DNA from: Platanthera guangdongensis
Lineage: Eukaryota; Streptophyta; Magnoliopsida; Asparagales; Orchidaceae
Direction of reading: 5' to 3'
NCBI GenBank assembly: GCA_039583875.1
Contig: CM077147.1
Span: 108,112,124 to 108,176,123 of the forward strand
Length of the DNA: 64,000 bases
In this document: positions 8,030 to 36,547 of the stretch, piece after piece
Layout of the letters: each line of letters begins with the position of its first letter
How positions within the stretch are numbered: position 1 is the first letter of the stretch
Position numbers and translations under genes: made by a program
Notes under the pieces: model-generated
What the model saw: only the letters and a program-made list of their open reading frames with translations
Told to the model about the DNA's origin: nothing
The model's database searches: none

Positions 8030-8260
8030 ATCTGAGTTGTAAGCCTATTATATAAAGGCTGAGTGTAGGAGAATATTTTCTCTGAGTGGTAGGGCTGTGA
8101 GGCTGAGGTGTAGGAGATTGAGATCTCTGAGTGTAGGCTTTGTTGAAGGCTGAGGTAGGATAGTTGGCCTGAGTTGTAGGAGTGTGGATACACTCTGAGT
8201 TGTAGGAACCTGGTTTGAGTTCTGAGTTGTAAGATCTAAGGATCTGAGGTGAAGTGCATA
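8030..8260 (+). repeat. CTGAGTTGTAGG-type irregular repeats in the LTR
   Basis: Variants of CTGAGTTGTAGG, CTGAGGTAGGA and CTGAGTGTAGG recur every 20-35 bp. The same block occurs in all SIRE-A LTRs (18596-18800; minus strand 19910-20170 and 49060-49310) and in the element C solo LTR (53525-53830). It is downstream of the TATA box and therefore probably transcribed. Confidence 0.75.
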
Positions 8261-8506
8261 AGTTAGACCAAATCTAGTACACTGCTAGATAGGCGAAGGG
8301 GGAAAGTGGATGTACCCAGACCTTGGGGAACCACTATAAATACTGTGTGCACTCTGTGATTGATTGTTTCTGTGATTGCTGTGTTGTGTTAGAAATAGTA
8401 TTTGCAGTTTATTATTAGTTAACTAAACAGCTGGACTGCCTTAAAAGAAAAACAGGAATTACACCTATTCACCCCCCTCTAGGTGGTTATACACTAATTC
8501 TTTCAA

Positions 8507-13826: not shown

Positions 13827-14275
13827 GGTGTCGACACAAGGAGTTGTCTGTGTCGACACATAGAAGTGGTGTTGACATTCCAGAGAAATGATGTCGACAC
13901 ATCTAGAAAGTCTGTGTCAACACTTCAGAGAAATAGTGTCGACACATCCAGAGTAGGTGTCGACACATCTAGAAGTGGTGTCGACACTTAGTTTCAATAC
14001 AGATTTCGTCGAGTAGAGTTTCGAATAATCATCGAGCGCAGATAAGTGTCGGCACATAAATTCTGTCGACTATATTAGTGTCGACATATAGTAGTCAGCA
14101 CCATTGTCGAGACTTAAGTAGTCGGTGTCGACACTTTTCAACAGTGTCGACACATTTAGAGGATTATGATGCGCCTTTTCACCTTCGTTTTTAGAAAGGT
14201 ATAAATAGGTCTTCAACATTGTTTGTCGACACGCTCTCAATAGTTTCGAGACCAAAACTTTGTGTCGACATCTCT
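13827..14275 (+). repeat. Second GTGTCGACAC array, in the spacer between pol and the extra gene
   Basis: Palindrome centres at 13832, 13854, 13873, 13895, 13918, 13940, 13961 and 13982 are 19-23 bp apart. Looser copies continue to about 14270, ending just before the ATG at 14308. The same array lies in SIRE-A2, where the LARD insertion splits it into 43327-43470 and 24560-24876. Confidence 0.92.
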
Positions 14276-17319: not shown

Positions 17320-19069
17320 TGTTGGGTACATTGGAAAATGTGTACCAGATTTGAAGAAGCCTCACCCTACTCAATGATATGCATCAAGGTGTATTTGATG
17401 TATTTTGAGTTTATATGTGCAGGTTAAGCAATTGCAGGAAATGCAGGAAAATTTCTAAGTCCATGTGTCGACACCTAGAGAAGCAATGTCGACACTTATG
17501 AAGGCTTGTGTCGACACTGGAGAAAAGTTGTGTCGACACTTGGAGTAGACATCGTCGACACTTGGACAGGCTGTGTCGACACTAGAAGAAATTGTGTCGA
17601 CATACAAAGGCAGTGTCGACACACAGAGTAGCAAAGTCGACATCAACTATGTCGACACCAAGAGGCAGTGTCGACACATACAGGAATACATAGTCGACAT
17701 CAAATGTGTCGACACCAAGAGGCAGTGTCGACACATAGAAGTACTTGTCAACATCAACTGTGTCGACACACAATAAAGCTTCAACAAAGTTAAAGTAAAG
17801 AAGTACTTGTGTCGACACAAAGGAGATGTGTCGACACACAACAAGTTTCAACAAAGTTAAAGAAAAGAAGGCTTGTGTCGACACACAGAATCAATGTCGA
17901 CACATTCTAAAGAAGCTGTGTCGAGAAGCTATTACAACAGCAAAAGGAGTTGTGTCGACACCACCAAGTCATGTGTCGACACTTAGTCCACTTGTGTCGA
18001 CACTTAGTCTACTTGTGTCGACACATAATGAAGATCAGACTCGACACTTTCAGACAGAGATAGTATTTCAAGAAGTGACTTGATGACTTGATAGCTGCCA
18101 TTCCTAACCGGTCTACTGCAACTGTCAAAGCTATCAGAAGTTTGTTAGAAACCGGATCAACCGGTTACCATGGAGGAAGAATATATAAAGGCCTTTCTCC
18201 TTTAACAGATAGTCACAAGAAGAATCAATAACAAATAGATTGAAGATCTACACAGATATCGATCAACACAAAAGAAGAAGACCTTCGACAGAAGATCTAA
18301 GAAGTTGGAGAGACAGAGAGCTCCATCTAAGAAGAGCAGTTGCTGAACTAGGCTGCCAAGAAAGAGTCAGATTAAGATCTGAATCTCAAGTCAGAAGCTG
18401 ATTGAAGATTAACTTCTCAAGATTTCAACCCTACTGAGTTCAGATTCAAGAAGCTTTGAAGAAAGCTAAGAGAGTTTGTGCTCTGCTATCAAGTTCTTCC
18501 AAGAACTGTTCAAGAAGCCATCCATCCCTTCTCTCTCTATCTGGGCGGTGGTTAATTACTTTGTAAACACTATTTTCTGTAGGATATATTCTAGATCTGA
18601 GTTGTAAGCCTATTATATAAAGGCTGAGTGTAAGAGAATATTTTCTCTGAGTGGTAGGGATGTGAGCCTGAGGTGTAGGAGATTGAGATCTCTAAGTGTA
18701 GGCCTTGTTGAAGGCTGAGGTACTGCAGTCGGCATGAGTTGTAGGAGTGTGGATACACTCTGAGTTGTATGAACCTGGTTTGGGTTCTGAGTTGTAAGAT
18801 CTGAGGATCTGAGGTGAAGTGTAGAAGTTAGGCCGAATCTAGTATACTGTTAGATAGGCGAAGGGGGAAAGTGGATGTACCCAGACTTTGGGGAACCACT
18901 ATAAATAATGTGTGCACTCTGTGATTGATTGTTTCTGTGATTGGTGTGCTGTATTAGCAGTAGTATTTGCAGTTTATTATTAGTTAACTAAACAGCTGGA
19001 CTGCCTTAAAATAAAAACAGGAATTACACCTATTCACCCCCTCTAAGTGGTTAGGCACTAATTCTTTCA
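17320..19069 (+). repeat. 3' LTR of SIRE-A1 (1750 bp), with palindrome array
   Basis: This is a direct copy of 6738-8505, from TGTTGGGTACATTGG to ATTCTTTCA. The GTGTCGACAC array occupies about 17464-18025 and the TATA box is at 18182-18189. A few array units differ from the 5' LTR: for example, one loses its CpG in the 5' copy only (GTGTTGACAC at 6991). Confidence 0.93.
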
Positions 19070-19646
19070 GGATCCTACCTCTCAGCCTTTATAAATCAGG
19101 CTTACAACTCAGATCAACTAAGATCCTACAAATATGGTAAGTTATTGATGATGATATGAATCCAGAGAAATGATTCTTTGTGTCTACCTTCTCAACTGAG
19201 TGAACTTAGCCCTACTTCTTCTCAGCACCAAGGAAGTAGATCTTCAGGATGTTTCTGTTTGTGTTAGGAAGAATCTCAGAAACTGGGGCTTCTGAACTTG
19301 TAGATGAAGACTAAATGATGTTTCTATTCTTTTCTTCTTCAATCAGCTAACCTTGTCTGAAGTTCTCAGACTTGTTGTTGAACTCGAGTTGCAAAGCTCT
19401 TCTTCTTTATTTTCTAGGAAGAAGATGATCCAGAAAAAAATATTCTCTTCCAAAAGTCAAAACCTTTCGTTAATTTATCAAAACTCGCTTTTTGTTTCAC
19501 GTAAATCCAACGGCTCTATGCACAGTATAGACCCCTGGAATGGGCAACTGCAGCACAACTTTTGCATTAAATGCAGTACTAAAGGTAAGCGACACATTTT
19601 GTCTTCTAGCAAGCAAATCCCGTGGTATTGAAATTTCTGCAGACAT
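19070..19646 (-). repeat. Fragment of the element C copia LTR between SIRE-A1 and SIRE-A2
   Basis: On the minus strand it matches the solo LTR from about 53025 to 53560 in order. Shared words include TACTGCATTTAATG, AGAGCCGTTGGA, AGGTAGACACAAAG, CTTGTAGGATC and TTATAAAGG. It begins with the GGATC duplication of SIRE-A1 and ends with the GACAT duplication of SIRE-A2. Confidence 0.75.
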
Positions 19647-21544
19647 TGAAAGAAATAGTGCCTAACCACCTAGAGGGGGGGGTGAATAGGTATAATTTTT
19701 TTTTTTACTTTAATGACAGAAAATCTGTTCTATAATCTAAGCAGCAATTGCAAATTCTACAGCTATCAGCACGACAATCACAGAAACAAACATTCACAGA
19801 GTGCACATAGAGTTTATAGTGGTTCCCCAAGGTTTGGGTACATCCACTTTCCCCCTTCACCTATCTAGCAGTGTACTAGATTCGGCCTAACTTCTGTACT
19901 TCTCCTCAGATCCTCAGATCTTACAGCTCAGAACCCCAAACAGGTTCCTACAACTCAGAGTGTCCCCACTCATACAACTCAGGCAAACTGCCCTACCTCA
20001 GCCTTCACCAAGGCCTACACTCAGAGAACACAGTCTCCTACAACTCAGGCATAAAGCCCTACCACTCAGTCTACAACAAGACCTACACTCAGAGAATAGA
20101 TTCTCCTACACTCAGGCTCAAAAGCCCTACCTCAGCCTTTATAAATTTAGGCTTACAACTCAGATCCCTTAGGATCCTACAAAAAGATAATAAAAGATTT
20201 TAGGTTACCACTCTGTTTGAGAGAATGAAGAGGGAAACCTTCTTGATCAGTTCTTGATAGAACTGATTTCTGAGATCAACTTTGTCTTTGCTTTCTTCAA
20301 GGCTTCTTGAGTCTGAACTCAGTAAAAGTTGATCTTCTTGAAGTAGTCCGGCGGGCAACTTCCTTCTTAAGATGAAGAATTAAATCTGGATCCTTCTTTG
20401 CAGTCTGGTTCAGAACCTGCTTCTTAAGAGATTTGACTAAACAAGTCTCTTTCTTGATTTCAATTACTGAAGTTCTCTCTCTCCAAGTAAATCTGAAGTT
20501 TCTTCAAAATACTGATTTACAGTTTTCTCTGGATCTGTATTCTACAATGATTGATCATTTTCTCTTGTTCTTACTTTCTGTTGAAGGAGAAAGCCTTTAT
20601 ATAGTCTTCCTCCATGGTAACCGGCTGATCCGGTTTTTAACGAACTTCTGACAGCTTCGACAGTTGCAGTAGACTGGTTGAAATGGCAGCTGTCAAGTCA
20701 TCCAGTCACTTCTTGAAATCACTGTCTCTGTCTGAAAGTGTCGAGACTAATCTTCATTATGTGTAGACACAAATAGACTAAGTGTCGACACAAGTGGACT
20801 AAGTGTCGACACTAGCCTTGGTGGTGTCGACACAACTCCTTCTGTTGTTGTAATAGCTTCTCGACACTGCTTCTGTTGAATGTGTCGACACTGATTGAGT
20901 GTGTCGACACAAGTACTTCTTCTTTAAAAATTAGTTGAATTCTGCTGTGTGTCGACACATCTCCTTTGTGTCGACACAAGTACTTCTTTAAAACTTGGTT
21001 GAATTCTGCTGTGTGTCGACACATCTCCTTTGTGTCGACACAAGTACTTCTTTGCTTTAACTGTTGTTGAAACTTGTCGTGTGTCGACACATCTCCTTTG
21101 TGTCGACACAATTGATGTTGACAAATACTTCTGTGTGTGGACACTGACTCTTGGTGTCGACACATTTGATGTCGACTAAGATTCTTTGGGTGTCGACACT
21201 GCCTCTAAGTGTCGACACAATTTATGTTGACAATTCTTCACAGTGTGTCGACACTGCCTGTATATGTCGACACATTTCTTCTGGTGTCGACTCAGCCTTT
21301 CCTGGTGTCGACCTAATTTACTCCAAGTGTCGACACAGCTTTTCTGCAGTGTCGACACAAGCTTTCATAAGTGTCGACACTGCTTCTCTAGTTGTCGACA
21401 CATGGACTTAGAATTTTCTGCATTTCCTGCAATTACTTAACCTGCACATATAAACTCAAAACACATCAAATACACTTTGATGTATATCATTGAGTAGGGT
21501 GAGGCTTCTTTAAATCTGGTACACATTTTCCAATGCACCCAACA
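19647..21544 (-). repeat. 3' LTR of SIRE-A2 (1898 bp), with palindrome array
   Basis: It runs from TGAAAGAAATAGTG to GCACCCAACA on the plus strand. The GTGTCGACAC array is at about 20755-21405, with decayed copies such as GTTGACAAAT and a GTGTGGACAC variant near 21135. It pairs with 48789-50680. Confidence 0.92.
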
Positions 21545-21810: not shown

Positions 21811-23598
21811 CTATGGCTGCTTTGGCTCCTTGATGACAATGCCCTTGCCTGATTGAATCTTGGCTTGAACTGGAGCATCAATGTCATCAACTGGCTTCTT
21901 GCCTTTAAGATCTTTCTTCTTTAGCTCTTCAGCCCTTATATTTTGTCTTTCAAAATAATGATAAGGCTTAGGGAAATACTTGCTAGGCTCCTGTGCATTA
22001 GGAGGTAGCTTCCCAAGTTTAGCCTTTCTTCTATACTGTACAATAGCCTCTTGCCTGGCTTCATGTTTTCTCCATTCTTGGTCAGAGTACCATTTGCCCC
22101 TTTCTAGGATATTTTCCTTTGCAGCTTTCCAAGCAGTCAATATGATATTTCTAGAAGTTGGGCTCCACTGCTCAAAATCTGTCCTTAACTCACCCTGTTC
22201 TCTGAACCTCTTCTTGGACAAAAGGGTTTCTTGCTCTTTTAATACTGCCTCTGGCACAGTCTGATCTACTCTCTCAATGATAATATTTTTATTTCCCTCT
22301 GGAGGGCTATACATAGATTGGACTTCTTGATGAATCATTTCAAAATCTGCAGGAGGATAGATTACTTGAGCAACTTCAGCTTGTTCACCTCCAAAATTAG
22401 CAGGATGCACTCCAGATTCTGCTACATTGTCATCATCACACAGGGGTGGATATCCAAGTGTGGCTCTGATGCTATTGGAAATCCATTTAGCATGGTCAGA
22501 TCCAGCCTTGACTAAAACCATCTCCCCCTTTATGACTTCTCTGGCTACATGATCTCTGAGATCATCCTTTTGGAATCTAACTTGTTCATCCATAAAGTTG
22601 ACTCCATCTTTGTAGAATGCTTTTAATTTCAGTAGCTGTCCAGAAATTGTCTTTTGGGAATCTGTAATAGCAATTTTTGCAGCAGCTATTCCTTCTTGTA
22701 ATTGCTTGTCAAACTCAGCCTTGGCAGTAGTCCTTGCTTCAGTCTGAGCAGCTGCAATAGTCTTCATTTCAGTTACTATCACATTATGTGATTCAGTTAG
22801 ATTTTCATTCATTCTAATCTGATTCTCAAGAACATATCGTTGTTTTACAGCCATATCATCCACTTGAGTCTTTATCTTTTCCTGATGAGTAGCTAGGTAA
22901 ACAACAACATTTCCACCCTTGTGGAAGCAATCAGTCATTTCTTTCTTATTTTGATTCATCTCAAATCTTATAGATTTTATATCTGTAGCCAAGGAGAATT
23001 GGAAATCTTTGTGAGTTTCATCGATATACTTCTCCATTGCTACTCTTTGTTCATCCAAATTCACTTGTATGGATACTAACAAAGAACTATAATCAATTAT
23101 TGGGGCAGGCTGAGGAGCCACAGTTTGTAATGCTTTCTTGTAGCTTTGGCTTCTTCTTTTGAAGACCATGAGCTCCCTATTCTTAGCCTGAACCTCAGCT
23201 GCATCCTCAGAATCAGAGGTACTGGCAATGTCAACTCTATCTTTAGGACTAGGATGCAAGTCCTGTGTAGTCTTAGGTAGCTCTCCCTGCACCCTTTGCT
23301 CCTCATTCTCATTTCTTTCAGTCTCCTCATGAAACTTTACATGCTCCCCCTCAAGATTTGCCTTCTCCCCCTCAAAAACTGCTTTCTCTCCCTCAAAATC
23401 AGTTTGTAGCAAATCAAGGAACAGCTCTTCTAGTGTATACTCTTGTTGAGTAGGGACATGAGAGTTTCTTATTTCTGGAGCATTATCAGCAACTAATGTA
23501 TCTTCCATGACAACATCTTGTGGTTGACTATGTAATTGAGTTTGCTCAAGGATTGTTTGAGTTTCCATTTCACTATCTAAGTGAGTAGGCTCTTCCAC
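21811..23598 (-). CDS. Extra coiled-coil protein of SIRE-A2, C-terminal 595 codons open
   Basis: This is the longest undamaged SIRE frame in the window. It starts MEEPTHLDSEMETQTILEQT and ends EPKQP. It contains an acidic segment with repeated FEGEKA/LEGEHV units (residues about 75-100). A basic cluster follows (VFKRRSQSYKKAL, about 150), then long heptad-like stretches (about 180-390) and a basic, Trp-rich C-terminus (WSPTSRNIILTAWKAAKENI, WYSDQEWRKHEARQE). There is no transmembrane segment or signal peptide. The equivalent SIRE-A1 gene runs in from an N-terminal domain upstream, so the true start is probably at 24534 and this Met is internal. Function unknown. Confidence 0.72.
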   Translation of the reverse strand: MEEPTHLDSEMETQTILEQTQLHSQPQDVVMEDTLVADNAPEIRNSHVPTQQEYTLEELFLDLLQTDFEGEKAVFEGEKANLEGEHVKFHEETERNENEEQRVQGELPKTTQDLHPSPKDRVDIASTSDSEDAAEVQAKNRELMVFKRRSQSYKKALQTVAPQPAPIIDYSSLLVSIQVNLDEQRVAMEKYIDETHKDFQFSLATDIKSIRFEMNQNKKEMTDCFHKGGNVVVYLATHQEKIKTQVDDMAVKQRYVLENQIRMNENLTESHNVIVTEMKTIAAAQTEARTTAKAEFDKQLQEGIAAAKIAITDSQKTISGQLLKLKAFYKDGVNFMDEQVRFQKDDLRDHVAREVIKGEMVLVKAGSDHAKWISNSIRATLGYPPLCDDDNVAESGVHPANFGGEQAEVAQVIYPPADFEMIHQEVQSMYSPPEGNKNIIIERVDQTVPEAVLKEQETLLSKKRFREQGELRTDFEQWSPTSRNIILTAWKAAKENILERGKWYSDQEWRKHEARQEAIVQYRRKAKLGKLPPNAQEPSKYFPKPYHYFERQNIRAEELKKKDLKGKKPVDDIDAPVQAKIQSGKGIVIKEPKQP

Positions 23599-24534
23599 AT
23601 GTTGAGGCTCCCCCTAGAGTGGATCCAGGTGGATGGGGCTAGCAGATGGTTTCTCCCCCTGCCTCTGTGCATCTTCAGTTCTCACTGGTAACTGTCCAGC
23701 ATTCCAAGCCTCTTCCTCATCAGAACTAAAAACTACTTGCTCCTCTGAACTACTGGAATGTTCAGGAGCCCTTTTGGTTTTCTTCTGCTTCTTCTATGGA
23801 GGTGTTTCCTTCTCTGGAGTAGACATATCCTTATTTAGCACCCTATCCCATCTTGAGATAATTCTGATATCCATCCTCCTCATATGGTTAATTTTAGAAC
23901 CAACAGCTTGATTCATGACTTCTGGAATAGTTCTAGCTAAGTACAAGCTCATTATCCTACCCAGATTAGGCTTCTTCAGACTTTCCTTAATTTTTTCAAA
24001 CATCACTGCTGACCAATCAGTTTTTATCTTAAAGATAATTCTTGTCATTAAACTGAACATGTGAGCTGATACCCTATCATGCCCAGCTAGCTTGCACAGA
24101 ATCACCTTTCCTACTACTTCAGACATGAATTTTCCTTGCATATTCATTCCTCTTCTGTTAAATACTGAACCAATCTTCATGGTTGAATCTAGTCCACACC
24201 ATTGCAGTGCATCCCTAGTCTTAGATGTAGGTACATCTTCCTCTTCTTTAGTTTTTGGTAGATGTAGAACTTTTCTTAGACTCTTTTGGGTGAGTTTTAC
24301 TTTGACTCCATGAACTGCAGACTTGATTTTGAGTCCAGTATCACCAAGGGTAGCTGCACCATAGAATTCGAGTACTTCCTTCTTCCAAATCTTGGTTGGC
24401 TCAGAAACAAAATACTCCAACCCGTTCTCATTAATTAGGGTTACACCATCCTTAATTTCTTGTTCTGCATGGTCAAACGCATTCCGTACTAACTCATATC
24501 CTTCATTGACGTTCTACTCGAGCTTTGGCGCCAT
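23599..24534 (-). pseudogene. N-terminal part of the SIRE-A2 extra gene, interrupted
   Basis: The ATG at 24534 reads MAPKLE and is followed at once by a stop in the position where SIRE-A1 has a sense codon. From 24420 to 23794 the frame is open (EYFVSEPTKIWKKEVLEFYG, KVKLTQKSLRKVLHLPKT, NKDMSTPEKETPP). One stop near 23794 and others before 23598 separate it from the C-terminal frame. Identity to SIRE-A1 14430-15040 is high by eye. Confidence 0.75.
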
Positions 24535-25011: not shown

Positions 25012-25091
<80 letters not shown>

Positions 25092-25552
25092 TAGAATATA
25101 GATAATAGATGATATATGTGATAGATGGGGTAGAGAAGAGATCGGGTGGAGCAGGGGGATATCGCGGGAAGGGGAGATGAGATCAGCTGGGGGGGGGGGA
25201 AATAAAAAGGAGGAAAAAAAAAGAGGGGGTCACGGGTTCCAGAGAAAAAAAAGAAAAAGGAAATAGCAGGGGGAGATCGGGGGGGGGGGGGGGGGGGGGG
25301 AGAAGCGGGAGCCAGAGCCCTAGCCCGATCGGCCTGGAACCCAGTCGCCGCCCCTGTCGTTCCCGCTCTTCCCCGTCCCCGGCTAAGCAACGCCTCCGCC
25401 GCCTCCTTCCCCCTCTCACCCTCGGCCTGGAGCAGCAAGGGGGCGCCCGCCCCCTCCATCTCTCACCCTCGGCACAGCAGGGCCGCCGCCGCCGCCGCCC
25501 CATTTCCCGCTCTTCCCCGTCGCCGGCTAAGCAACGCCGCCGCCGCCTCCTT
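24877..25552 (+). repeat. 5' LTR of the LARD element, left segment
   Basis: It matches 41219 onward: TGTACAACCCCGTAGCCGGG, the (TA)n tract, G-runs and a CG-rich stretch. It ends with the TCCTT duplication of the Tekay insertion and resumes at 36553. Proline/arginine-rich open stretches here on the minus strand come from CG-rich low-complexity sequence, not from a gene. Confidence 0.92.
25018..25088. repeat. (TA)n microsatellite in the LARD LTR
   Basis: About 35 TA units. The same position in the other LTR (41357-41420) has a shorter, interrupted tract. Confidence 0.97.
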
Positions 25553-26438
25553 TGTCACAACCCGCATTTTCTCAATGGTAAAATCGTATCAGAGTAAGAG
25601 AAAACACGTGCTAGTCCACAGTTAAAACTATATTTATACGCAGCAGAAAATACTTCGGTTCAATTAAACTGACACCCTAAGTGAGCATAAGTGTCCCCGG
25701 GGGACGACTTACACGAGCATGACTCTAAGGTGAATATAGTAGGTATGAAAAATAGTGTTTTACGTTGAGGAAAAAGATAGTGTCTTTGTTTTAGAAAACA
25801 TGTTATGCATGAAGTACATATATTAATACTTTTAGATTTTTAAAATATCTAACATGCAGCCTAGCATAAATCCTTCCTAGAAGCAAGTAACCAACCTCAA
25901 ATAGGCAAAAACAGCAGTTTAAATTCATATTCAGCATCACAAAAGGCCACCAGTGGGCGCCAACAACCTGACACGAACCCACTGACGAGTATGTATGTCT
26001 ATACAGAAGAGTAAAGAGCTACCTCACAACAGACGGGGATCAGCAATCTCAGCTACCCTAGAGGCCACCAACAAGCCCCTCCAAAGAACTAGCCGCTGAA
26101 CTGGCTACAACCTGGACCTGAGGCATTCAAGAAAAGAACACCTCAGCAAGGAAACATCAAAAGTAATTAGAGCAATAGGTTAATGAGCAATAAGATGAAG
26201 GGTTTACCAACCCGGCAACAAGCTGCTATAAGAAAAGAAAGAGGGAAAGGCAGCAAGAAAAGAGTACTGTCTATGGCACTGCAGGGCACACCAAGGGTGA
26301 GCATTTAAAACCAACATGCCCCACCAATAAAGCCTGCAACAGCATCAAGACATATGCATATGCCAAAAGAAAGGGAAAGCATAAACAGGAAAGGGACTAA
26401 CAGTCCTAACACGTGTGTGAGTGGCAGTGGTCAGACAT

Positions 26439-26468
26439 GGGTCTGATTGTATAACTAGAATCAGACCC
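26439..26468. repeat. Perfect 10-bp inverted repeat in the Tekay LTR
   Basis: GGGTCTGATT, 10-nt loop, AATCAGACCC. It is identical at 34751-34780 in the other LTR and lies on the side of the array nearer the LTR 3' end. Confidence 0.9.
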
Positions 26469-26793
26469 AAAAAGGGCTAAGGGGTCAAACAGTGGCAGCT
26501 TTACGGTCCCACACATACCAACCCAAACCGGGGCAAAAGGCGGTGGCCACAGCTCTCCACATAAAACCACCCCTCTAGAGGCCACCAAAACTCCACCACC
26601 TGCCACGACCCAAGAGTCGGCATGCAGAAAATAGCCAAACACCCAAAGCACCCCCCCCTAGGGAAAAAGTCAAGCTAACAATCCTAAGGAACTCACGAAC
26701 CCAAGACAAAACGTCGGGTCCAACCGACGCGGCCTTGCACGCCCAACCTGAACCAACCCCGAGTATACCTGACCCCAAGACAAGCGCAGCACC

Positions 26794-27265
26794 AGTGTCG
26801 ACACGATGTGTCGACACCTCGACAAGCCGGTGTCGACACAAGGTGTCGACACAACACGGCCGGTGTCGACACCGAGTGTCGACACTATAGAGGCCAGTGT
26901 CGACACAAGGTGTCGACACTGCCACGGCTGGTGTCGACACCGAGTGTCGACACTACAGAGGCCAGTGTCGACACAAGGTGTCGACACTGCCACGGCTGGT
27001 GTCGACACCGAGTGTTGACACTACAGAGGCCAGTGTCGACACAAGGTGTCGACACTGCCACGGACTGGTGTCGACACCGAGTGTCGACACTACAGAGGCC
27101 AGTGTCGACACAAGGTGTCGACACTGCCACGGCTGGTGTCGACACCAAGTGTCGACACCACTGCAGTCGGTGTCGACACAAGGTGTCGACACTGCCACTG
27201 CTGGTGTCGACACCAAGTGTCGACACCACGACTGGCCGGTGTCGACACAACAGTGTCGACACCCC
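26794..27265 (-). repeat. GTGTCGACAC tandem array in the Tekay 3' LTR
   Basis: The repeating unit is 68 bp (two 34-bp halves) with four palindromes. Centres at 26799, 26812, 26834, 26847, 26867, 26880, 26901, 26914, 26935, 26948, 26969 and 26982 alternate about 13 and 21 bp. The order continues to about 27260. One copy near 27015 is GTGTTGACAC. Long open frames on both strands here simply follow the repeat. Confidence 0.96.
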
Positions 27266-27837
27266 AATTGGCTACAGGAGCCAGATCCAGCAAACGACCA
27301 AAAACGGGAACGGGGAAAAATCCTCTTCTCTCTCGAGCACGACCTCCATCGGCAATGGTACCTACTCGACCTAGACCGAACCAAAACTGCCCCTAATAGA
27401 CGAAATCCCTCAGGAAAACTGAGATTTTCTGGACCTTCCTACACTAACCATGGCATGATCGGGAATAAGCCCTAGCTTACACCTCAGATCTACACAAAAG
27501 AGATAAAAGATTAAATCAAAAGAAGGCAAAGATCAACTAGGCAAGGATGAGGGTACATCACTTGCCTCAAAACCAGGAACTCGGTCGGCGGCCTCCCCCG
27601 CTTGCGGATCTGGACGCAGGGCAGCAAGCTGAGGAGCAGAAAGAAGGCAGATCCCGGCGGGGGCAGCCCAGATCCACTCTCGAAACCAAGATCCGACCGC
27701 AGAAACTCCAGGAAAACGACGTCCAAAGGCTAGGGTAGGCCGGCGACGCTCCTCCTCTCGCACGACGGGCGACGGCTTCTACCAAACAGAGAAACAGGAA
27801 AGAACCAAAAAGGAACCTAGCCCTAATCTGACCCAAG

Positions 27838-27845
27838 ACTATATA
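27838..27845 (-). promoter_or_regulatory. Possible TATA box of the Tekay LTR (3' copy)
   Basis: The minus strand reads TATATAG about 395 bp inside the LTR, with the same sequence at 36152-36158 in the 5' copy. If used, the palindrome array would lie in the transcribed leader rather than in U3. No start site can be shown from sequence. Confidence 0.35.
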
Positions 27846-28235
27846 TCAGCAGTAATAATGATAAACCACAATACATAATAGTTACTATTTACACCCAATA
27901 TCAAAACAACCCGAAACTTCTCGGAAAAAGACGAAATTTACGCCGCAGCTAAAAACCCACGCTACGAACGCAACTACGAAGTCGAAATTAACATTCGACG
28001 AACAAAACCCGGGATAACACCTCCCGAAGCCAAAACACAAGCATTCCCTAAGAGGCCCAACCGAGTCATCAAAAGACTCCGGCTAGCTGGGGAATCTTGC
28101 TAACAGGCTACAAACAGGCTACACAGGGAACCCTAAGAGCTAAGACCACGCTCTACAACGGCAAAAAGCCGGAAATACGCCATCGTAACGCCAGCCAAAG
28201 ATCAAACGAAGCACAGAAAAACCGGGGGCGTTACA

Positions 28236-28359: not shown

Positions 28360-29721
28360 TCAGGGAAACAGATGAGGGTGAGCCTCCCTCATCGCCGACT
28401 CCAACTCCCAAGTCGCGCTTTCCACATCTTGATTTCTCCATAAAACTTTAACCATCGGAATAGTCTTCTTCCGCAACGCCCGAACTTGAGAATCCAAAAT
28501 ACGAACAGGCACCTCCACATAAGAAAGATTCGGCTCCAACTGAGGCCCAGAATCCAAAACCTCCCTGCCATTCATCACACATTTTCGCAGCTGACTGACG
28601 TGAAAGACATCGTGCACGCCAGGGAAATTTGCGGGCAAAGCCAGCCTGTAGGCTGATACCCCAATCCGCTCAACAATCGGAAACGGCCCCACATACCTCG
28701 GGTCCAACTTCCTATTCTTGCCAAACCGCTTGACTCCAACCAACGGGGAGACCTTCAAGAATACCGAGTCCCCCACCGCAAATTCCAAGTCCGATCTACG
28801 CCGATTGGCGTTCTTCTCATACCTCTCCTGGGCTATCCGAAGATTTTCCCGAATAAGCTTCACAGCGGTTTCCATCTCCTCAAGCGCTTCTGGTCCTAAC
28901 AAAGGTCCCTCGCCAAGCTCAGCCCAAAACAAGGGAGTCCTGCAGCGCCTCCCATATAGAGCTTCAAAGGGAGCCATTTGCAAGCTTTCTTGGAAACTGT
29001 TGTTATATGCGAATTCCATAAGCCGCAAGCGCTCGTCCCACGCGCCTCCGTGGTCCAGAATATAACATCGGATCATATCTTCCACAATCTGATTTACTCG
29101 CTCTGTCTGACCATTGGTCTGCGGATGATAAGCTGTGGAATATCTCAAATCTGTACCCAACCCTTCTTGAAGGCTCTTCCAAAAACGAGACGTGAACCTG
29201 GAGTCTCGATCTGATATGATACTTACGGGTACACCATGCAATCTGACAACCTCTTCCAGATACAGCTCGGCTATCTTCCTCATCGGATAATCGTTCTTAA
29301 ATGGCACGAAATGAGCGCTCTTCGTCAATCTGTCTACAATTACCCAAACTGAATCATGCCCCTTAGGCGATCTCGGTAAGCCGGTAATGAAATCCATTGA
29401 GATACTCTCCCACTTCCACATCGGAATCTCCAAGGGAGTCAGCTTGCCACCAGGCCTCCCATGGTCGGCTTTCACGCGCCTGCAAGTGAAACACTCTGAA
29501 ACAAATCTGGCTATGTCCTTCTTCATCCCGTACCACCAGGCAATCTGTTTTAAATCATGATACATCTTGGTAGACCCTGGATGGTAGGCAACACTAGATC
29601 CGTGGGCGTCTCTGCACACCATATCTCGGATATCTCCAACTGCGGGGACGCAAAACCTGCCACGGTACTTCAAGGTACCCGCATCATCTATAGAGAAATC
29701 TTGTAATTCACCCTTCTTAGC
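28360..29721 (-). pseudogene. Integrase and chromodomain-like tail of Tekay pol
   Basis: 437 codons are open (28360-29673). The order is zinc-finger region (HGSSVAYHPGSTKMYHDLKQ, CFTCRRVKADHG), catalytic core (SMDFITGLPRSPKGHDSVWV, ISDRDSRFTSRFW, YHPQTNGQTERVNQI), GPY/F-like part (PRYVGPFPIVERIG, HDVFHVSQLRK) and tail (RILDSQVRALRKKTIPMVKV, WELESAMREAHPHLFP). The tail is the degenerate chromodomain typical of Tekay, thought to steer integration to heterochromatin. An upstream stop near 29720 cuts it from RNase H. The D,D,E core looks intact by eye. Confidence 0.88.
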
Positions 29722-30410
29722 TCAAAGATACAAATGCAGAAGATCGGGATCGTCCTTCTGATGCAGTCTCGTAAGCGAAATCCACGAAGGTTCTGCTATT
29801 GCTATACTACTCTGCGAGTCACAGCTTCCCACGGTAATGTCCATCAACAGAAACTCTTCCACTAGACGCTCGGCGGAGAGATTAAAGATCTTACCTGACT
29901 TCCGACTCAGGGCATCAGCCACCACATTTGCTTTGCCTGGATGATACTGAATTTCAACATCATAGTCGGCCACGTACTCTAACCACCGCCGCTGGCGCAG
30001 ATTCAATTCTTTCTGAGTGAAGACATACTTCAGACTCTTATGATCCGTGAAAATCTTGCACTGCGCGCCATATAGTAGATGCCTCCATAATTTCAACGCA
30101 TAGATCACAGCTGCAAACTCCAGGTCATGCGTAGGGTAGTTCCTCTCGTGAGTCTTTAACTGCCTCGACCCATACGCAATCACCTTCCCGCCCTGCATCA
30201 AAACGCAGCCCAGACCGACATGTGACGCATCCACATAAATATCATATTCACTATCCCCCGTAGGCAAAGACAAAACTGGAGCCGAGCATAGCCTCCTTTT
30301 TAGCTCCTCAAAAGCCTTCTCACACTTATCATCCCATATAAAGGCTACATTCTTCTGTGTCAACTTGGTCAACGGACGCGGACAAGGTAGAGAAGCCTTC
30401 TACAAATCTT
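29722..30410 (-). pseudogene. RNase H part of Tekay pol
   Basis: An open frame of 216 codons with [60 protein letters not shown] and [16 protein letters not shown]. These are the Asp, Glu, Asp, Asp sites of gypsy RNase H. It ends at a TGA where the family is likely to have an Arg codon (CpG to TpG). The upstream side is cut by a frameshift near 30440. Confidence 0.88.
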
Positions 30411-31740
30411 CTATAATAACCCGCCAAACCAAGAAGCTTCTGATCTCTTTGGGGTAACAGGTCTCGCCCAATCCATGACAGCAGCGATCTTCTCTGGGTC
30501 CACCGATATTCCCTCCTTATTAATCACGTGACCTAGAAAAGAAACTTGAGGCAACCAAAATTCACATTTGCTCAGCATGGCGTACAACTTATGGTCCCTC
30601 AGAGTCGCCAAGACCAGGCGCAAATGTCGATCATGCTCCTCTGCATCCCTAGAATACACCAAAACATCGTCTATAAAGACAATCACGAACTTATCTAGAA
30701 AATCCTTGAAAACTCTGTTCATCAAATCCATAAAAGCTGAGGGCGCATTAGTCAAACCGAATGACATAACTAAAAACTCAAAATGCCCATGACGAGAGCG
30801 GAATGCCGTCCGCGAAATATCTGATTCCCGAATCCTCAACTGGTGATAGCCCGAACGAAGATCTATCTTGGAAAACACGGCACTACCTCGCAGTTGGTCA
30901 AACAAATCGTCGATTCGCGGCAAAGGGTACCTGTTCTTAATCGTAACCTTGTTCAACTCTCTATAGTCGATGCATAACCTCATCGACCCATCCTTCTTTT
31001 TAACGAACAGCACTGGTGCACCCCAAGGCGAAGAACTTGGCCTTATAAAGCCCTTTTCCAACAACTCATCCAGCTGAATCCGCAACTCTTCCAGCTCTCG
31101 CGGGGCCATCCGGTACGACGCCTTAACGATAGGACGCGTACCTGGCTCCAAATCTATTACAAACTCGACATCTCGATCAGGTGGAAGACCGGGAAGGTCG
31201 TCTGGAAACACATCAGAAAAGTCACGCACCACAGGAATTTCTTCCAAACGGGGCTTACTAACAATCGACCCTACCAGAGAAACCACACAGGCAAAACAGC
31301 CAGAAACAAGCAACTTTCGAGCACGCACCGCAGAAATGATTGGAGACTCCTGGAGAGAATACCCATAAACGCTCCCTGGCTGACCGTTGTCTTTGACGAA
31401 GTCCAAGCGCTTACCCTTGCACTGGATCACAGCATCGTACCTTGACAACCAGTCCATGCCCAAAATAACGTCGAAGTCCTCCAGGTCAATCACCATCAAA
31501 TCTGCCTTGGCAAGGAAATCTCCCAACAAAATTGGACAATCTAGGACACCCAGGTCCGCAACCACAGAGTCGCCGGAGGGGAACTTAATGCAGAAGGCAC
31601 CACCAACACGATCTAGGCCCAGACTGAACCGCTCCACAAAGGCTTTAGCCACAAACGAGTGGGTAGCGCCGGAATCGAAGAGAACGCGTGCGCAGCGGTT
31701 CTTTACCTTAAATCGCCCTACGAATTTACATACGCATCTA
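30411..31740 (-). pseudogene. Protease and reverse transcriptase part of Tekay pol
   Basis: The protease active site DSGATHSF lies upstream of the first Met, near 31665-31690. RT is complete to the thumb: [72 protein letters not shown] and the catalytic [14 protein letters not shown]. It ends in a one-base frameshift near 30440, after DWARPVTPK, that separates it from RNase H. Gag and protease are also out of frame with each other somewhere between about 31720 and 31976. Confidence 0.88.
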
Positions 31741-31977
31741 AGGCAACAAGCGCCAAAATGAAACTACAACCAAAAAGGGAACGTAACGAAACGACTGGAG
31801 AGGAGTCGAACCTGAGATAACCTGGGTCGAGGTCTGCGCTTCGTCTGCCGAGAGCACATTCAGCTTTCCTTTTCCTTTATCCACTTGCTGAGGCGGTGGC
31901 AGAGCCTGGAGGGGAACTGGCTGCAGAATAGAATGGGTCTGGGGGCACCTTGTCTTGAGATGACCCTTCTGGCCGCA

Positions 31978-33051
31978 CTAAAAACAGACCTTATCTTTTA
32001 ACCAACAACGGGCAGCCTCGTGCCCCTTCCTTCCACACAAGGCACACACCAAGTCTCCCCTGGAAGTACCCTGAATCGCGTGCACCTGTTCCTTCTTCTG
32101 CGCTCCCAACCTTTTGAAGCACTTCTCAAAGGGGTGGCCTGGCCGGCCACAAAAGCTACAAATCTCTTTGACCTTCTTCCTTGCGACAGCATCAGGTTCC
32201 TGAGGGCTCTTCCCTCCACCGGACTTCCGCTTATCTTTCCTTAACTGCTGGCCTCTATTCTTGGCATTCTCAATGGCCTCAACTCTCAAAGCAGCTTCAA
32301 CCGCACTGGCGTAACTGACTGCTCCATAAGCATTCGCTAACTGCTGTATGTCGCTTCTTAATCCACCCAGGAATCGCTTAACCCGGTCTGCCTCAACACT
32401 CACCAGACCCGGAGCAAACCGACTCAACTTACTAAACTCAATCTCATACTCACTAACCGTGAGTTTCCTCTGCTTTAAGTGAAGAAAGTCGTTCATTAGC
32501 CGGTCCCGTTCGACTGAAGGTAGAAACTTACTTAACAACAACACCTTAAATGACTCCCAAGTGCAACCTGCCACTAAGCTCTCTTTCTCCCTCAGCCACC
32601 AATTCTTTGCTAAGCCCTTGAGCTGGTAGGCAGCGAGCATCACTCTCTGTTCGTCCGTAATCCCTGAGTACGAGAACATTTCCTCAATGGTAATCAGCCA
32701 GTCATCCAAAATCATGAAATCGGCCTGTCCATCATAGGTAGGGGGTCTCAGCCGCTGAAACTGGGATATGAATGCCATCTCCGGGGGCACTACAACCAAA
32801 GGCACGGGAGGAGCAGGAGGGGCAGGGACAACTACCCCCTCTGCGGGGTCCTGAGCTCTCGGGGGTTGCCCCGCCACCACAGCTACAAGGGACTGAATCT
32901 GAGCCTGCATAGCCACTACCTGCCTCGATAACTCCTCATTACTCTGTCGCAAGCTTTCTGCCAACGCATCGCTCTGCGCTCCTGACGTCTCACCCTCGGA
33001 CTGGGGCGTCGATCTCGTCGTAGGACGTCTCGCCATCCTAAAATCGCACAA
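31978..33051 (-). CDS. Gag of the Tekay element (357 codons open)
   Basis: The capsid protein has LRPPTYDGQADFMILDDWLI, LKGLAKNWWLREKESL, FLPSVERDRLMNDFLHLKQR and EYEIEFSKLSRFAPGLVS, all typical of plant chromovirus gag. Two CCHC knuckles follow (CSFCGRPGHPFEKC, CALCGRKGHEAARC). A third begins at KVCF and is cut by a TAG near 31977, after which CGQKGHLKTRC continues in the same frame. So the normal Gag is longer and the stop is a single change. The likely start is the second Met (MARRPTTRSTPQ, 33036). Confidence 0.85.
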   Translation of the reverse strand: MCDFRMARRPTTRSTPQSEGETSGAQSDALAESLRQSNEELSRQVVAMQAQIQSLVAVVAGQPPRAQDPAEGVVVPAPPAPPVPLVVVPPEMAFISQFQRLRPPTYDGQADFMILDDWLITIEEMFSYSGITDEQRVMLAAYQLKGLAKNWWLREKESLVAGCTWESFKVLLLSKFLPSVERDRLMNDFLHLKQRKLTVSEYEIEFSKLSRFAPGLVSVEADRVKRFLGGLRSDIQQLANAYGAVSYASAVEAALRVEAIENAKNRGQQLRKDKRKSGGGKSPQEPDAVARKKVKEICSFCGRPGHPFEKCFKRLGAQKKEQVHAIQGTSRGDLVCALCGRKGHEAARCWLKDKVCF

Positions 33052-33710
33052 ACTTTAGACAAATCCTAGCCCATCAACTAGAACAAAATTACCCGGTACG
33101 GACAAACACACTTGAATATGAACTTCAACTGCAAAACTTGCTCTGGGAGTCGTTTTCACCATGATGATGTTATGCTTATCCTAAGATGGTTCACCACCAT
33201 CATACTAACTCAGGTGCCTAAACCATGAATGCATGTATTTATATTCTTTTTGACTCAAAACCATGTGTGTACATATGTCATCTTGCAAATCTTTAGCTTG
33301 GCACGTTGTGCTTATGAAATGATATGCTATGCATGATGTGCTATGCATTCTAAAAAAAACCTTAGTGCATGCCATGGGCGGCGTACACATGAAAATGTTA
33401 TGCATCCCATACTACATAACATTCCCATATAACGAGAAAAGAAAACGTGCTAGCCGCATTCATGTGGTGAGGTTATGCATCCCATACTACATAACCCTCA
33501 CATGTTGCCTCCTATGGTGGATCCATATACAAACACATATTATGCATCCCATACTACATAATATGCCCTGTATACTTCTTCATACTCATGAGTGTAGTGT
33601 TCGTGCTTCGGCCAAGACGTGCTGATGACATATCGGTGTGTGGATGGTATGATGCTAAGCACTAATGCAGACAAGGGAAAGGTTGCCCAACCATTTGTCA
33701 AGCAACCTCC
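33052..33710 (-). other. 5' leader of the Tekay element, with three spaced copies of a short dyad repeat
   Basis: I see no gene. A 22-bp word beginning TTATGCATCCC and ending TACTACATAA occurs three times (33398-33419, 33473-33494, 33540-33561), 75 and 67 bp apart. Its ends TTATG/CATAA form an inverted pair. It could be a packaging or dimerisation stem-loop, but this is only a guess. Confidence 0.6.
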
Positions 33711-33723: not shown

Positions 33724-36547
33724 TGTCACAACCCGCATTTTCTCAATGGTAAAATCGTATCAGAGTAAGAGAAAACACGTGCCATGATGCCACGTCGTGC
33801 AGGGGATAACTGCACACGCTCAGGCAAAACTCCAGACATTACATTTTAAGGAAAATTGTTGATTCGATATGAAAGAAAATCAGTTACGAAGAATGGCCGT
33901 ATCCCTCGGCCCGGTGGATCAGCTAGTCCACAGTTAAAACTCTATTTATACGCAGCAGAAAATACTTCGGTTCAATTAAACTGACACCCTAAGTGAGCAT
34001 AAGTGTCCCCGGGGGACGACTTACACGAGCATGACTCTAAGGTGAATATAATAGGTATGAAAAATAGTGTTTTACGTTGAGGAAAAAGATAGTGTCTTTA
34101 TTTTAGAAAACATGTTATGCATGAAGTACATATATTAATACTTTTAGATTTTTAAAATATCTAACATGCAGCCTAGCATAAATCCTTCCCAGAAGCAAGT
34201 AACCAACCTCAAATAGGCAAAAACAGCAGTTTAAATTCATATTCAGCATCACAAAAGGCCACCAGTGGGCGCCAACAACCTGACACGAACCCACTGGAGA
34301 GTATGTATGTCTATACAGAAGAGTAAAGAGCTACCTCACAACAGACGGGGATTAGCAATCTCAGCTACCCTAGAGGCCACCAACAAGCCCCTCCAAAGAA
34401 CTAGCCGCTGAACTGGCTACAACCTGGACCTGAGGCATTCAAGAAAAGAACACCTCAGCAAGGAAACATCAAAAGTAATTAGAGCAATAGGTTAATGAGC
34501 AATAAGATGAAGGGTTTACCAACCCGGCAACAAGCTGCTATAAGAAATGAAAAAGGGAAAGGCAGCAAGAAAAGAGTACTGTCTATGGCACCGCAGGGCA
34601 CACCAAGGGTGAGCATTTAAAACCAACATGCCCCACCAATAAAGCCTGCAACAGCATCAAGACATATACATATGCCAAAAGAAAGGGAAAGCATAAACAG
34701 GAATGGGACTAACAGTCCTAACACGTGGGTGAGTGGCAGTGGTCAGACATGGGTCTGATTGTATAACTAGAATCAGACCCAAAAAGGGCTAAGGGGTCAA
34801 ACAGTGGCAGCTTTAGGGTCCCACACACACCAACCCAAGCCGGGGCAAAAGGTGGTGGCCACAGCTCTCCACATAAAACCACCCCTCTAGAGGCCACCAA
34901 AACTCCACCACCTGCCACGACCCAAGAGTCGGCATGCAGAAAATAGCCGAACACCCAAAGCACCCCCCCCTAGGGAAAAAGTCAAGCTAACAATCCTAAG
35001 GAACTCACGAACCCAAGACAAAATGTCGGGTCCAACCGACGCGGCCTTGCACGCCCAAACTGATCCAACCCCGAGTCTACCTGACCCCAAGACAAGCGCA
35101 GCACCAGTGTCGACACGATGTGTCGACACCTCGACAAGCCGGTGTCGACACAAGGTGTCGACACAACCACGGCCGGTGTCGACACCGAGTGTCGACACTA
35201 CAGAGGCCAGTGTCGACACAAGGTGTCGACACTTCCACGGCTGGTGTCGACACCGAGTGTTGACACTACAGAGGCCAGTGTTGACATAAGGTGTCGACAC
35301 TGCCACGGCTGGTGTCGACACCGAGTGTCGACACTACAGAGGCCAGTGTCGACACAAGGTGTCGACATTGCCACGGCTGGTGTCGACACCGAGTGTCGAC
35401 ACTACAGAGGCCAGTGTCGACACAAGGTGTCGACACTGCCACGGCTGGTGTCGACACCAAGTGTCGACAACACTGCAGCCGGTGTCGACACAAGGTGTCG
35501 ACACTGCCGCTGCTGGTGTCGACACCAAGTGTCGACACCACGACTGGCCGGTGTCGACACAACAGTGTCGATACCCCAATTGGCTACAGGAGCCAGATCC
35601 AGCAAACGACTAAAAATGGGAACGGGGAAAAATCCTCTTCTCTCTCGAGCACGACCTCCATCGGCAATGGTACCTACTCGACCTAGACCGAACCAAAACT
35701 GCCCCTAATAGACGAAATCCCTCAGGAAAACTGAGATTTTCTGGACCTTCCTACACTAACCATGGCATGATCGGGAACAAGCCCTAGCTTACACCTCAGA
35801 TCTACACAAAAGAGATAAAAGATTAAATCAAAAGAAGGCAAAGATCAACTAGGCAAGGATGAGGGTACATCACTTGCCTCAAAACCAGGAACTCGGTCGG
35901 CGGCCTCCCCCGCTTGCGGATCTGGACGCAGGGCAGCAAGCTGAGGAGCAGAAAGAAGGCAGATCCCGGCGGGGGCAGCCCAGATCCACTCTCGAAACCA
36001 AGATCCGACCGCAGAAACTCCAGGAAAACGACGTCCAAAGGCTAGGGTAGGCCGGCGACGCTCCTCCTCTCGCACGACGGGCGACGACTTCTACCAAACA
36101 GAGAAATAGGAAAGAACCAAAAAGGAACCCAGCCCTAATCTGACCCAAGACTATATATCAGCAGTAATAATGATAAACCACAATACATAATAGTTACTAT
36201 TTACACCCAATATCAAAACAACCCGAAACTTCTCGGAAAAAGACGAAATTTACGCCGCAGCTAAAAACCCACGCTACGAACGCAACTACGAAGTCGAAAT
36301 TAACATTCGACGAACAAAACCCGGGATAACACCTCCCGAAGCCAAAACACAAGCATTCCCTAAGAGGCCCAACCGAGTCATCAAAAGACTCCGGCTAGCT
36401 GGGGAATCTTGCTAACAGGCTACAAACAGGCTACACAGGGAACCCTAAGAGCTAAGACCACGCTCTACAACGGCAAAAAGCCGGAAATACGCCATCGTAA
36501 CGCCAGCCAAAGATCAAACGAAGCACAGAAAAACCGGGGGCGTTACA
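33724..36547 (-). repeat. 5' LTR of the Tekay element (2824 bp), with palindrome array
   Basis: It matches 25553-28235 throughout, apart from 141 extra bases at 33782-33922. The GTGTCGACAC array is at 35106-35575. The inverted repeat is at 34751-34780 and the possible TATA at 36152-36158. Array copies near 35257 and 35279 have lost the central CpG (GTGTTGACAC, GTGTTGACAT) and differ from those changed in the other LTR. Confidence 0.93.
35106..35575 (-). repeat. GTGTCGACAC tandem array in the Tekay 5' LTR
   Basis: Same 34/68-bp organisation as 26794-27265, with four palindromes per 68 bp. The ordering of unit variants is conserved between the LTRs, so the array predates this insertion. Confidence 0.95.

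What the first reader, a model, noticed from the sequence alone, without database searches (positions are those of the whole stretch)
26794..27265. Same palindrome in a Ty3/gypsy Tekay LTR, unrelated to the copia family that carries it
The Tekay LTR shares no other obvious sequence with SIRE-A LTRs, yet it has dozens of GTGTCGACAC copies. They are arranged as 34-bp units with alternating 13- and 21-bp steps, in both of its LTRs (also 35106-35575). Two superfamilies carrying one 10-bp motif in high copy suggests sequence capture, or convergence on one binding factor. A gypsy element could profit from a factor made for, or by, the SIRE elements.
Basis: partly seen in the sequence, partly recalled or inferred. 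Interest (0 to 1): 0.88.

Follow-up and report, generated by a model that had tools for sequence, protein, structure and literature searches.

The report
Shared palindrome code in orchid retrotransposons
Two unrelated groups of jumping genes in an orchid genome carry large arrays of the same ten-letter DNA palindrome in their terminal repeats, which suggests that both are steered by the same unknown DNA-binding protein.

Summary
Both LTRs of a minus-strand Ty3/gypsy element (25553-36547) carry 28 GTGTCGACAC palindromes at alternating 13- and 20-22-bp steps. The held genome (4.25 Gb, probably Platanthera) has 2,076,908 copies against 2,228 for the reversed word. All 20 Tekay-A copies fetched carry the array. 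It is not a satellite: in a 200-kb sample all six clusters lay in LTR elements. Carriers found are two Sirevirus (copia) and two gypsy lineages; the nearest gypsy relative found lacks it and instead carries two other words, each also found in a Sirevirus lineage. Palindromes stay 92-99% identical between SIRE-A LTRs whose spacers are 45-96% identical, but after insertion decay nearly as fast as spacers. Best flank matches across families are at chance, though average flank identity slightly exceeds it in three of eight comparisons. Best reading: these are 'repeated motif' regulatory arrays, known from Sireviruses, that chromoviruses also carry because they use the same sequence-specific factor, most likely a host one. 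The factor is unidentified and there is no experiment. Capture from Sireviruses stays a serious rival. A Sirevirus-made factor exploited by Tekay is not excluded but has little support.

The parts
25553..28235 (-). 3' LTR of the Ty3/gypsy element (Tekay-A), lacking about 139 bp present in other copies
   Evidence: LTR ends TGTCACAACC.../...GCGTTACA; 98.3% identical to the other LTR over 2,639 aligned columns; other copies carry about 139 bp between query bases 58 and 57
26795..27262 (.). Array of 28 GTGTCGACAC palindromes in the 3' LTR, steps 13/20-22 bp
28360..33054 (-). gag-pol: gag, protease, reverse transcriptase, RNase H, integrase parts, SH3_Tf2-1 and a weak chromodomain match
   Evidence: Pfam hits on four open frames
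33724..36547 (-). 5' LTR of the same element, 2,824 bp; TATAAATAG at LTR position 2598, TATATAG at 391; primer-binding-like TGGTATCAGAG follows
35107..35574 (.). Array of 28 GTGTCGACAC palindromes in the 5' LTR (23 exact, 4 with one mismatch, 1 with two)
25548..25552 (.). Target-site duplication TCCTT, left copy (right copy 36548-36552)
6739..8504 (+). SIRE-A LTR with palindrome array 6883-7461; TATATAAAGG at 7619, 158 bp after the array
   Evidence: the exact LTR ends are my reading of the sequence
17320..19069 (+). SIRE-A LTR with palindrome array 17465-18047
19646..21544 (-). SIRE-A LTR with palindrome array 20738-21401
48789..50680 (-). SIRE-A LTR with palindrome array 49882-50545
13828..14271 (+). 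SIRE-A internal array between pol and the accessory (env-position) frame; its minus-strand counterpart is 24571-24876 plus 43343-43461, split by a nested insertion
   Evidence: accessory frames
21811..24513 (-). SIRE-A accessory frames downstream of pol (weak match to Transposase_32 in 23794-24513)
   Evidence: relatives in Platanthera zijinensis
50684..53500 (.). SIRE-B repeats with a different dyad word, GTGAA-N5-TTCAC, within longer arms of the type CGTTGAGTGAA...TTCACTCAACG; shares half-site CACTCAACGCC with Tekay-0 LTRs

Best explanation
The array is a cis-regulatory 'repeated motif' box in the LTR of a Ty3/gypsy chromovirus. It is a dense set of identical 10-bp palindromic sites, many of them about two helical turns apart, bound by a sequence-specific dimeric DNA-binding protein that raises LTR transcription or keeps the LTR from being silenced. 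The factor is most likely host-encoded, because unrelated element lineages use the same word. SIRE-A elements carry the same boxes upstream of a TATA box in the LTR and upstream of their accessory gene. The Tekay-A lineage gained its array separately, then multiplied it by tandem duplication while keeping the palindrome and letting the spacers turn over. Shown: presence, excess, positions, conservation of the palindrome across SIRE-A LTRs, near-equal decay after insertion, sharing across families. Inferred: protein binding, the sign of the effect, host origin, independent gain.
For: Exact word repeated in SIRE-A (9-29 in five stretches), Tekay-A (22-27 in three), SIRE-C (3-6 in three of five stretches, 0 in two) and Tekay-B (2-6 in four), 0.00 in shuffles of each; 932 times the reversed control genome-wide. 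Over 21 pairs of 7 SIRE-A LTRs, palindrome columns are 92-99% identical while spacers run 45-96% and the rest of the LTR 65-96%; 16, 15, 16 and 10 of 16 exact sites of one LTR keep a site at the aligned place in four others. In 24 Tekay-A sequences 632 of 696 palindromes are exact although 64 different spacers of 9-13 nt occur. After insertion the constraint nearly vanishes: 7/280 palindrome against 4/187 spacer differences between the two window LTRs, 17/1700 against 21/1163 over six other LTR pairs. Steps of 19-22 bp are 96 of 157 in SIRE-A LTRs and 67 of 141 in Tekay-A. In the SIRE LTR the array ends 158 bp before a TATA box, as in Bousios 2010 (PMC2829016, sections 9 and 19 read). The nearest gypsy relative found (L015, reverse transcriptase 70% identical) lacks the word, the more distant Tekay-B (54%) has it, so two gains are likely. 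Best flank matches across families are not beyond shuffles. Other words are shared across superfamilies too.
Against: No binding, expression or methylation data. The Tekay-A array lies about 1.15 kb before the better TATA box; a weaker TATA-like word lies before it, so its place relative to transcription start is open. The alignment tends to match palindromes with palindromes; the alignment-free order test is clear for only some pairs (of 10, 3 never reached in 500 shuffles, 3 reached 5-25 times, 4 reached 122-149 times). Steps of 19-22 bp are only 3 of 11 in Tekay-B. Mean flank identity exceeds the largest null in three of eight comparisons, all with SIRE-A, and Tekay-0 shares a 26-27 nt stretch with SIRE-B; both could mean capture. 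Two gains rest on three reverse-transcriptase sequences, not a tree. The only paper search for the 10-mer listed 20 of 31 papers, by title none on plant LTRs; no search for a binding factor was made.
Confidence: 0.45

Rival explanations
1. Capture: a piece of a Sirevirus LTR or linker array entered the Tekay-A LTR by template switching or recombination, and its spacers were later rewritten by mutation and tandem duplication. Function may be the same, but the origin is not convergent.
For: The Sirevirus array looks older: it is in SIRE-A LTRs only 65-73% identical outside the array, while Tekay-A copies with it differ by about 20% and relatives at 64-66% lack it. Spacer word ACAGAGGC is shared with SIRE-A at p about 0.05. 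Mean flank identity SIRE-A to Tekay-A 0.256 against a largest null of 0.245. For another word, Tekay-0 and SIRE-B share a 26-27 nt stretch at 93-96% that runs well beyond the half-site.
Against: Best flank match between SIRE-A and Tekay-A sites is 14 of 24 bases, shuffled mean 14.1, reached in 47 of 60 shuffles. The shared spacer word is absent from the three diverged Tekay-A stretches L053, L054 and L061 and so may be derived. Regular 13/21-bp alternation was not seen in the Sirevirus copies read.
Confidence: 0.27
2. Element-made factor: the Sirevirus accessory protein, or another element protein, binds the palindromes like VANC proteins bind VANDAL motifs, and Tekay elements without such a gene use it in trans.
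For: SIRE-A and SIRE-C, which both carry the word, both encode a related accessory frame. Tekay-A shows no frame of 180 codons or more on its coding strand beyond gag-pol. VANC precedent: short motifs in tandem arrays in non-coding DNA bound by an element protein (PMC5735166, passages read).
Against: The SIRE accessory protein has only weak matches to a domain of unknown function; its relative P0001 has no convincing solved match (best E 0.28), and the model has mean pLDDT 36.6. L011, a Sirevirus relative with a related accessory frame, has no copy of the word in its 10 kb. Several words shared by several families fit several host factors more simply.
Confidence: 0.1
3. Structure, not sequence: the arrays matter as hairpin-forming RNA or DNA (small-RNA targets, packaging or dimer signals).
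For: The Tekay-A array folds far better than shuffles (z -17.9), the SIRE array too (z -8.4). Maize Sirevirus palindrome clusters are reported to be small-RNA hot spots (PMC5311732 and PMC10760457, passages read).
Against: Structure alone would accept any word paired with its complement; it does not predict the same 10-mer in four lineages with 632 of 696 exact copies in one of them, nor self-palindromic sites 34-58 bp apart.
Confidence: 0.1
4. No function: tandem slippage and gene conversion spread a chance word.
For: Unit number varies between copies and between LTRs about 8 kb apart that look like one element, e.g. 30 and 24 (L029, L030).
Against: Homogenisation would carry the spacers along; they diverge while the palindromes do not. 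The same word in unrelated LTRs is not explained.
Confidence: 0.04

Closest known systems
Sirevirus repeated motif (RM) boxes, Bousios et al. 2010 (PMC2829016; abstract, sections 9 and 19 read)
   Same: Palindromes in 8-32 copies, in the LTR upstream of the TATA box and again upstream of the env-position gene; flanks diverged, palindrome conserved.
   Different: Their RMs have a CGG-CCG core (Tnd-1 excepted); this one is GTGTCGACAC. They call RMs Sirevirus-specific and absent from classic retrotransposons, in an analysis described as of Ty1/copia elements; here the same word is in Ty3/gypsy elements.
Maize copia palindrome CACCGGACNNNGTCCGGTG, also commonest in Helitron structured regions (PMC10760457, passages read)
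   Same: One palindromic word reported in two kinds of element in one genome.
   Different: There a DNA transposon order and a genome-wide structure scan; here two LTR superfamilies with arrays at their own spacing. Bousios 2016 (Genome Research) is not held and was not read.
Heat-responsive elements of ONSEN and other Brassicaceae COPIA families (PMC5059998, abstract and passages read)
   Same: Sites for a host factor with suggested multiple independent origins in LTR families, partly by duplication of a proto-site.
   Different: Few nGAAn sites within Copia; here dozens of perfect palindromes, across Copia and Gypsy, factor unknown.
VANDAL/VANC anti-silencing (PMC5735166, passages read)
   Same: Short motifs accumulated in tandem arrays in non-coding parts of elements, differing between relatives.
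   Different: VANC is encoded by the element and its motif is rare in other elements; no such protein is shown here and the motif is shared across families.

Membership tests
Sirevirus RM box | Palindromic word in at least eight copies within the element | tested here: met
   28 per Tekay-A LTR, 23-26 per SIRE-A LTR array in the window, at up to two mismatches
Sirevirus RM box | Cluster in the LTR shortly upstream of the TATA box | tested here: inconclusive
   Met for SIRE-A (158 bp); for Tekay-A about 1.15 kb before TATAAATAG and after a weaker TATATAG
Sirevirus RM box | Further copies upstream of the env-position gene | tested here: inconclusive
   Met for SIRE-A (13828-14271); no such gene was seen in Tekay-A
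Sirevirus RM box | CGG-CCG core | tested here: not met
   Core is GTCGAC; Vitis CGGTCGACCG in the paper shares GTCGAC
Sirevirus RM box | Carrier is a Ty1/copia Sirevirus | tested here: not met
   Carrier at 25553-36547 has the Ty3/gypsy order gag, protease, RT, RNase H, integrase
Tekay chromovirus | Ty3/gypsy domain order with LTRs, 5-bp target duplication, primer-binding site | tested here: met
Tekay chromovirus | Chromodomain at the integrase C-terminus | tested here: inconclusive
   Tekay-A: Chromo E 5e-5, 23.6 bits, curated cut-off 25.1. Tekay-B (L027): no Chromo match listed
Tekay chromovirus | Reverse transcriptase groups with reference Tekay elements | not tested
VANC-type anti-silencing target | Element-encoded protein binds the motif | not testable with these tools
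   Needs a binding assay; the structure model was worthless
ONSEN-type heat element | Clustered nGAAn sites | tested here: not met
   The repeated word is GTGTCGACAC, with no GAA; spacers were not scanned for nGAAn clusters

The most novel reading that the evidence does not exclude
Sireviruses and chromoviruses of this orchid draw on one common set of switch words (the palindrome GTGTCGACAC and at least the half-sites CTCGACGAA and CACTCAACGC) and change words between sister lineages; the words are read by proteins that Sireviruses themselves encode, so that Tekay elements live on a regulator made by another superfamily.
Probability: 0.08. Interest if true: 0.95.

Novelty: new variant of a known kind. 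Interest (0 to 1): 0.72.

Why it matters
RM boxes were described as a Sirevirus hallmark among Ty1/copia elements. Finding the identical word in Ty3/gypsy elements of the same genome, with other words also shared between the two superfamilies and differing between sister lineages, makes an old question testable: which protein wakes plant LTR elements, and do competing elements converge on it or pass its sites to each other. With two million copies, about half a percent of the genome is one word, a very large sink for whatever protein reads it.

Tried and rejected
General satellite: rejected. 15 of 20 systematically placed 10-kb loci had no exact copy and all six clusters lay in LTR elements.

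Recent insertion of SIRE DNA: rejected on best flank matches and on the array's presence in an 80%-identical Tekay-A subfamily. Old capture is not rejected.

Spacer word ACAGAGGC as a relic of capture: p about 0.05, present in 16 of 20 near copies, absent from L053, L054 and L061; left open.

Tag search to draw random sites: 1,804 and 1,607 hits; the listed places are mostly one tag variant, often in pairs 9-11 kb apart, and one of them was later read as SIRE-C; not usable as a random sample.

AACTCGACGAA as a count of the second word: only about five times its control; the shorter CTCGACGAA is about nine times its control. This second word is the weakest of those proposed.

IMG/VR scan for the 13-bp-step pair: none. 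Paper search for the 10-mer: 31 papers hold it, 20 were listed, none by title on plant LTRs.

Structure of the SIRE accessory protein: mean pLDDT 36.6, no conclusion drawn; no structure search was made on it.

SIRE-C was first taken for a non-Sirevirus because L001's neighbouring RT is only 23-27% identical; L063-L065 show the LTR family belongs to a Sirevirus (RT 66%). L001's own RT remains unexplained. L018's GTGAA-N5-TTCAC copies lie in a SIRE-B stretch, not in the Tekay-0 LTR, and that row was shortened.

Full report
What is there. The window contains 138 exact copies of GTGTCGACAC against 0.03 expected, all in clusters. The named stretch is the array inside the 3' LTR of a minus-strand Ty3/gypsy element at 25553-36547, with TCCTT target duplications, LTRs of 2,683 and 2,824 bp (the shorter lacks about 139 bp that other copies have), a TGGTATCAGAG primer-binding-like site three bases after the 5' LTR, and gag, protease, RT, RNase H, integrase and a weak chromodomain match. 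Each LTR carries 28 palindromes at alternating 13 and 20-22 bp. The two LTRs differ at 28 of 2,157 aligned positions outside the array; with a rice rate of 1.3e-8 per site and year, recalled and not from a call, that is about half a million years.

Genome. The window is G000:C1:108112124-108176123 of a 4.25-Gb assembly. The accessory protein's three relatives are all from Platanthera zijinensis (52-67% identical), and size and contig lengths roughly fit the published P. guangdongensis (21 chromosomes of 143-306 Mb, 4.20 Gb; PMC9023349, passages read; largest contig seen here 308 Mb). The species is inferred. GTGTCGACAC occurs 2,076,908 times per strand, the reversed word 2,228 times. The 13-bp-step pair, frequent in Tekay-A, occurs 26,347 times, control 0.

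Which families carry it. A systematic sample of twenty 10-kb loci holds 48 exact copies in 5 of 20 loci; the six clusters of two or more sites lie in SIRE-A (L017 twice, L025), SIRE-C (L019) and Tekay-B (L027 twice). L018 has two single sites not assigned to a family. SIRE-C is an LTR family (L001, L019 and L063 align at 72-79% over their long matches); between two tagged sites 9.4 kb apart, L064 and L065 encode an accessory frame and a copia RT 66% identical to SIRE-A, hence a Sirevirus. Two of five SIRE-C stretches (the window's solo LTR and L014) have no copy. Tekay-B is a gypsy element with a different LTR; sites with a GC-rich flank, which in the places I followed up were mostly Tekay-B with one Tekay-A, count 8,608 and 8,460, controls 19 and 23.

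Tekay-A copies. Of the 40 scored LTR hits I fetched array regions for 20; 20 of 20 carry 22 to 39 palindromes (L031 is probably cut), with variable unit number. These are among the best-scoring, hence closest, copies of 6,730 first-look candidates. A subfamily about 80% identical (L053) has the same design with other spacers.

Relatives without it. L015 and L018 hold LTRs 64-66% identical to the Tekay-A LTR over their alignable 3' part, with no site at up to one mismatch in the LTR stretch scanned. L055 (L015 itself with flanks) and five further L015-family loci (L056-L060) have none, and the longest hits are nearly colinear with the query. L015's RT is 70% identical to Tekay-A (147 of 210), Tekay-B's 54% (196 of 360), L015 to Tekay-B 57% (139 of 244). 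So the nearer relative lacks the word and the farther one has it: two gains are the simpler reading, from three sequences only.

Other shared words. Tekay-0 LTRs (the L015 family) carry CTCGACGAA/TTCGTCGAG (3 to 8 in L015 and L056-L060; 1 in the L018 stretch) and CACTCAAYGC half-sites (2 to 6; none in L018), with shuffle expectations at most 0.07. CTCGACGAA is also in SIRE-C (7, 4, 6 and 3 in four stretches, 0 in the fifth), and CACTCAAYGC in SIRE-B (24 in the window stretch, 9 in L018). Tekay-0 has only half-sites of the SIRE-B dyad, never the full GTGAA-N5-TTCAC (0 in six loci). Genome counts, both strands against reversed controls: ACACGGGCGTGT (the main word of Tekay-B) 494,367 against 192, CACTCAACGCC 91,482 against 801, CTCGACGAA 413,282 against 45,484, AACTCGACGAA 13,773 against 2,559. 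The SIRE-A and Tekay-A stretches carry GTGTCGACAC and none of the other three patterns.

Selection. Over 21 pairs of seven SIRE-A LTRs palindrome columns are 92-99% identical, spacers 45-96%, the rest 65-96%. Alignment can favour palindromes, so I also compared step orders without alignment: in 3 of 10 pairs the observed order was never reached in 500 shuffles, in 3 pairs 5 to 25 times, in 4 pairs 122 to 149 times. Among 24 Tekay-A sequences 632 of 696 palindromes are exact with 64 spacer kinds. After insertion, differences are 7/280 in palindromes and 4/187 in spacers for the window element, and 17/1700 against 21/1163 over six other LTR pairs, three of which differ in unit number. So the constraint acts on replicating lineages and largely ends at insertion, as expected of a site needed by the element.

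Capture or convergence. Comparing 12 bases on either side of sites across families (eight comparisons), no best pair clearly exceeds shuffles (SIRE-A against Tekay-A 14 of 24, null mean 14.1; the lowest share of shuffles reaching a best pair is 7 of 60, Tekay-B against SIRE-C). Mean identity exceeds the largest null in three comparisons, SIRE-A against Tekay-A, Tekay-B and SIRE-C (0.256, 0.260, 0.293 against 0.245, 0.253, 0.269); neighbouring palindromes at similar steps may cause this, but I did not separate that. The one suggestive spacer word is absent from three diverged Tekay-A stretches. Tekay-0 and SIRE-B share a 26-27 nt stretch at 93-96% that joins two half-sites and runs beyond them, which favours capture for that pair.

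Mechanism. One perfect 10-bp palindrome in many copies, steps of 19-22 bp common in unrelated LTRs (SIRE-A LTR 96 of 157, SIRE-A linker 20 of 36, Tekay-A 67 of 141, SIRE-C 6 of 10, but Tekay-B 3 of 11), upstream of a TATA box in SIRE-A, is what an array of sites for a dimeric protein looks like. RNA folding is strong, but structure alone does not predict one shared word. I recall, without a test, that plant IDD zinc fingers and ARF or DREB proteins read words resembling TGTCG; these are leads only. The SIRE accessory protein could not be assessed.

Known and new. Sirevirus RM boxes are known and match the SIRE part closely except for the CGG-CCG core (PMC2829016; abstract, passages, sections 9 and 19). 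That source calls RMs Sirevirus-specific and absent from classic retrotransposons, from an analysis of Ty1/copia elements. The gypsy arrays and the sharing across superfamilies did not appear in my searches (open-licence papers only, capped lists, mostly judged by listing). A sharing between copia elements and Helitrons in maize is reported (PMC10760457, passages read).

Noticed in passing
window 24877-43326: Nested insertions: the chromovirus sits inside an LTR of another element (LTR 24877-25544 plus 36547-38031, other LTR 41219-43326), which itself splits a SIRE-A element at its internal palindrome array (24876|43327).
   Followed up: partly
window 39104-40705: 10.9 copies of a 147-bp tandem repeat, 95% matches, inside the internal part of that host element.
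   Followed up: no
window 26688-27374 and 35085-35708, + strand: Long open frames run across the arrays (228 and 207 aa), on the strand opposite to the element; they look like a by-product of the repeat.
   Followed up: no
window 60170-61643: Stretch that looks like a solo LTR of the SIRE-C family, without the palindrome array, inserted in a gypsy element.
   Followed up: partly
L028:3284-3410: Six 20-bp tandem units, five TGTCGGACTTGCGACACGAG and one variant, outside any LTR recognised here; a different dyad built from the half-site TGTCG.
   Followed up: no
L018:7580-8150: Tandem units of about 18 bp with CGACATTTGTCG dyads.
   Followed up: no
L054 (C1:9262300-9263700): A Tekay-A array split by an insertion of several hundred bp.
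   Followed up: no
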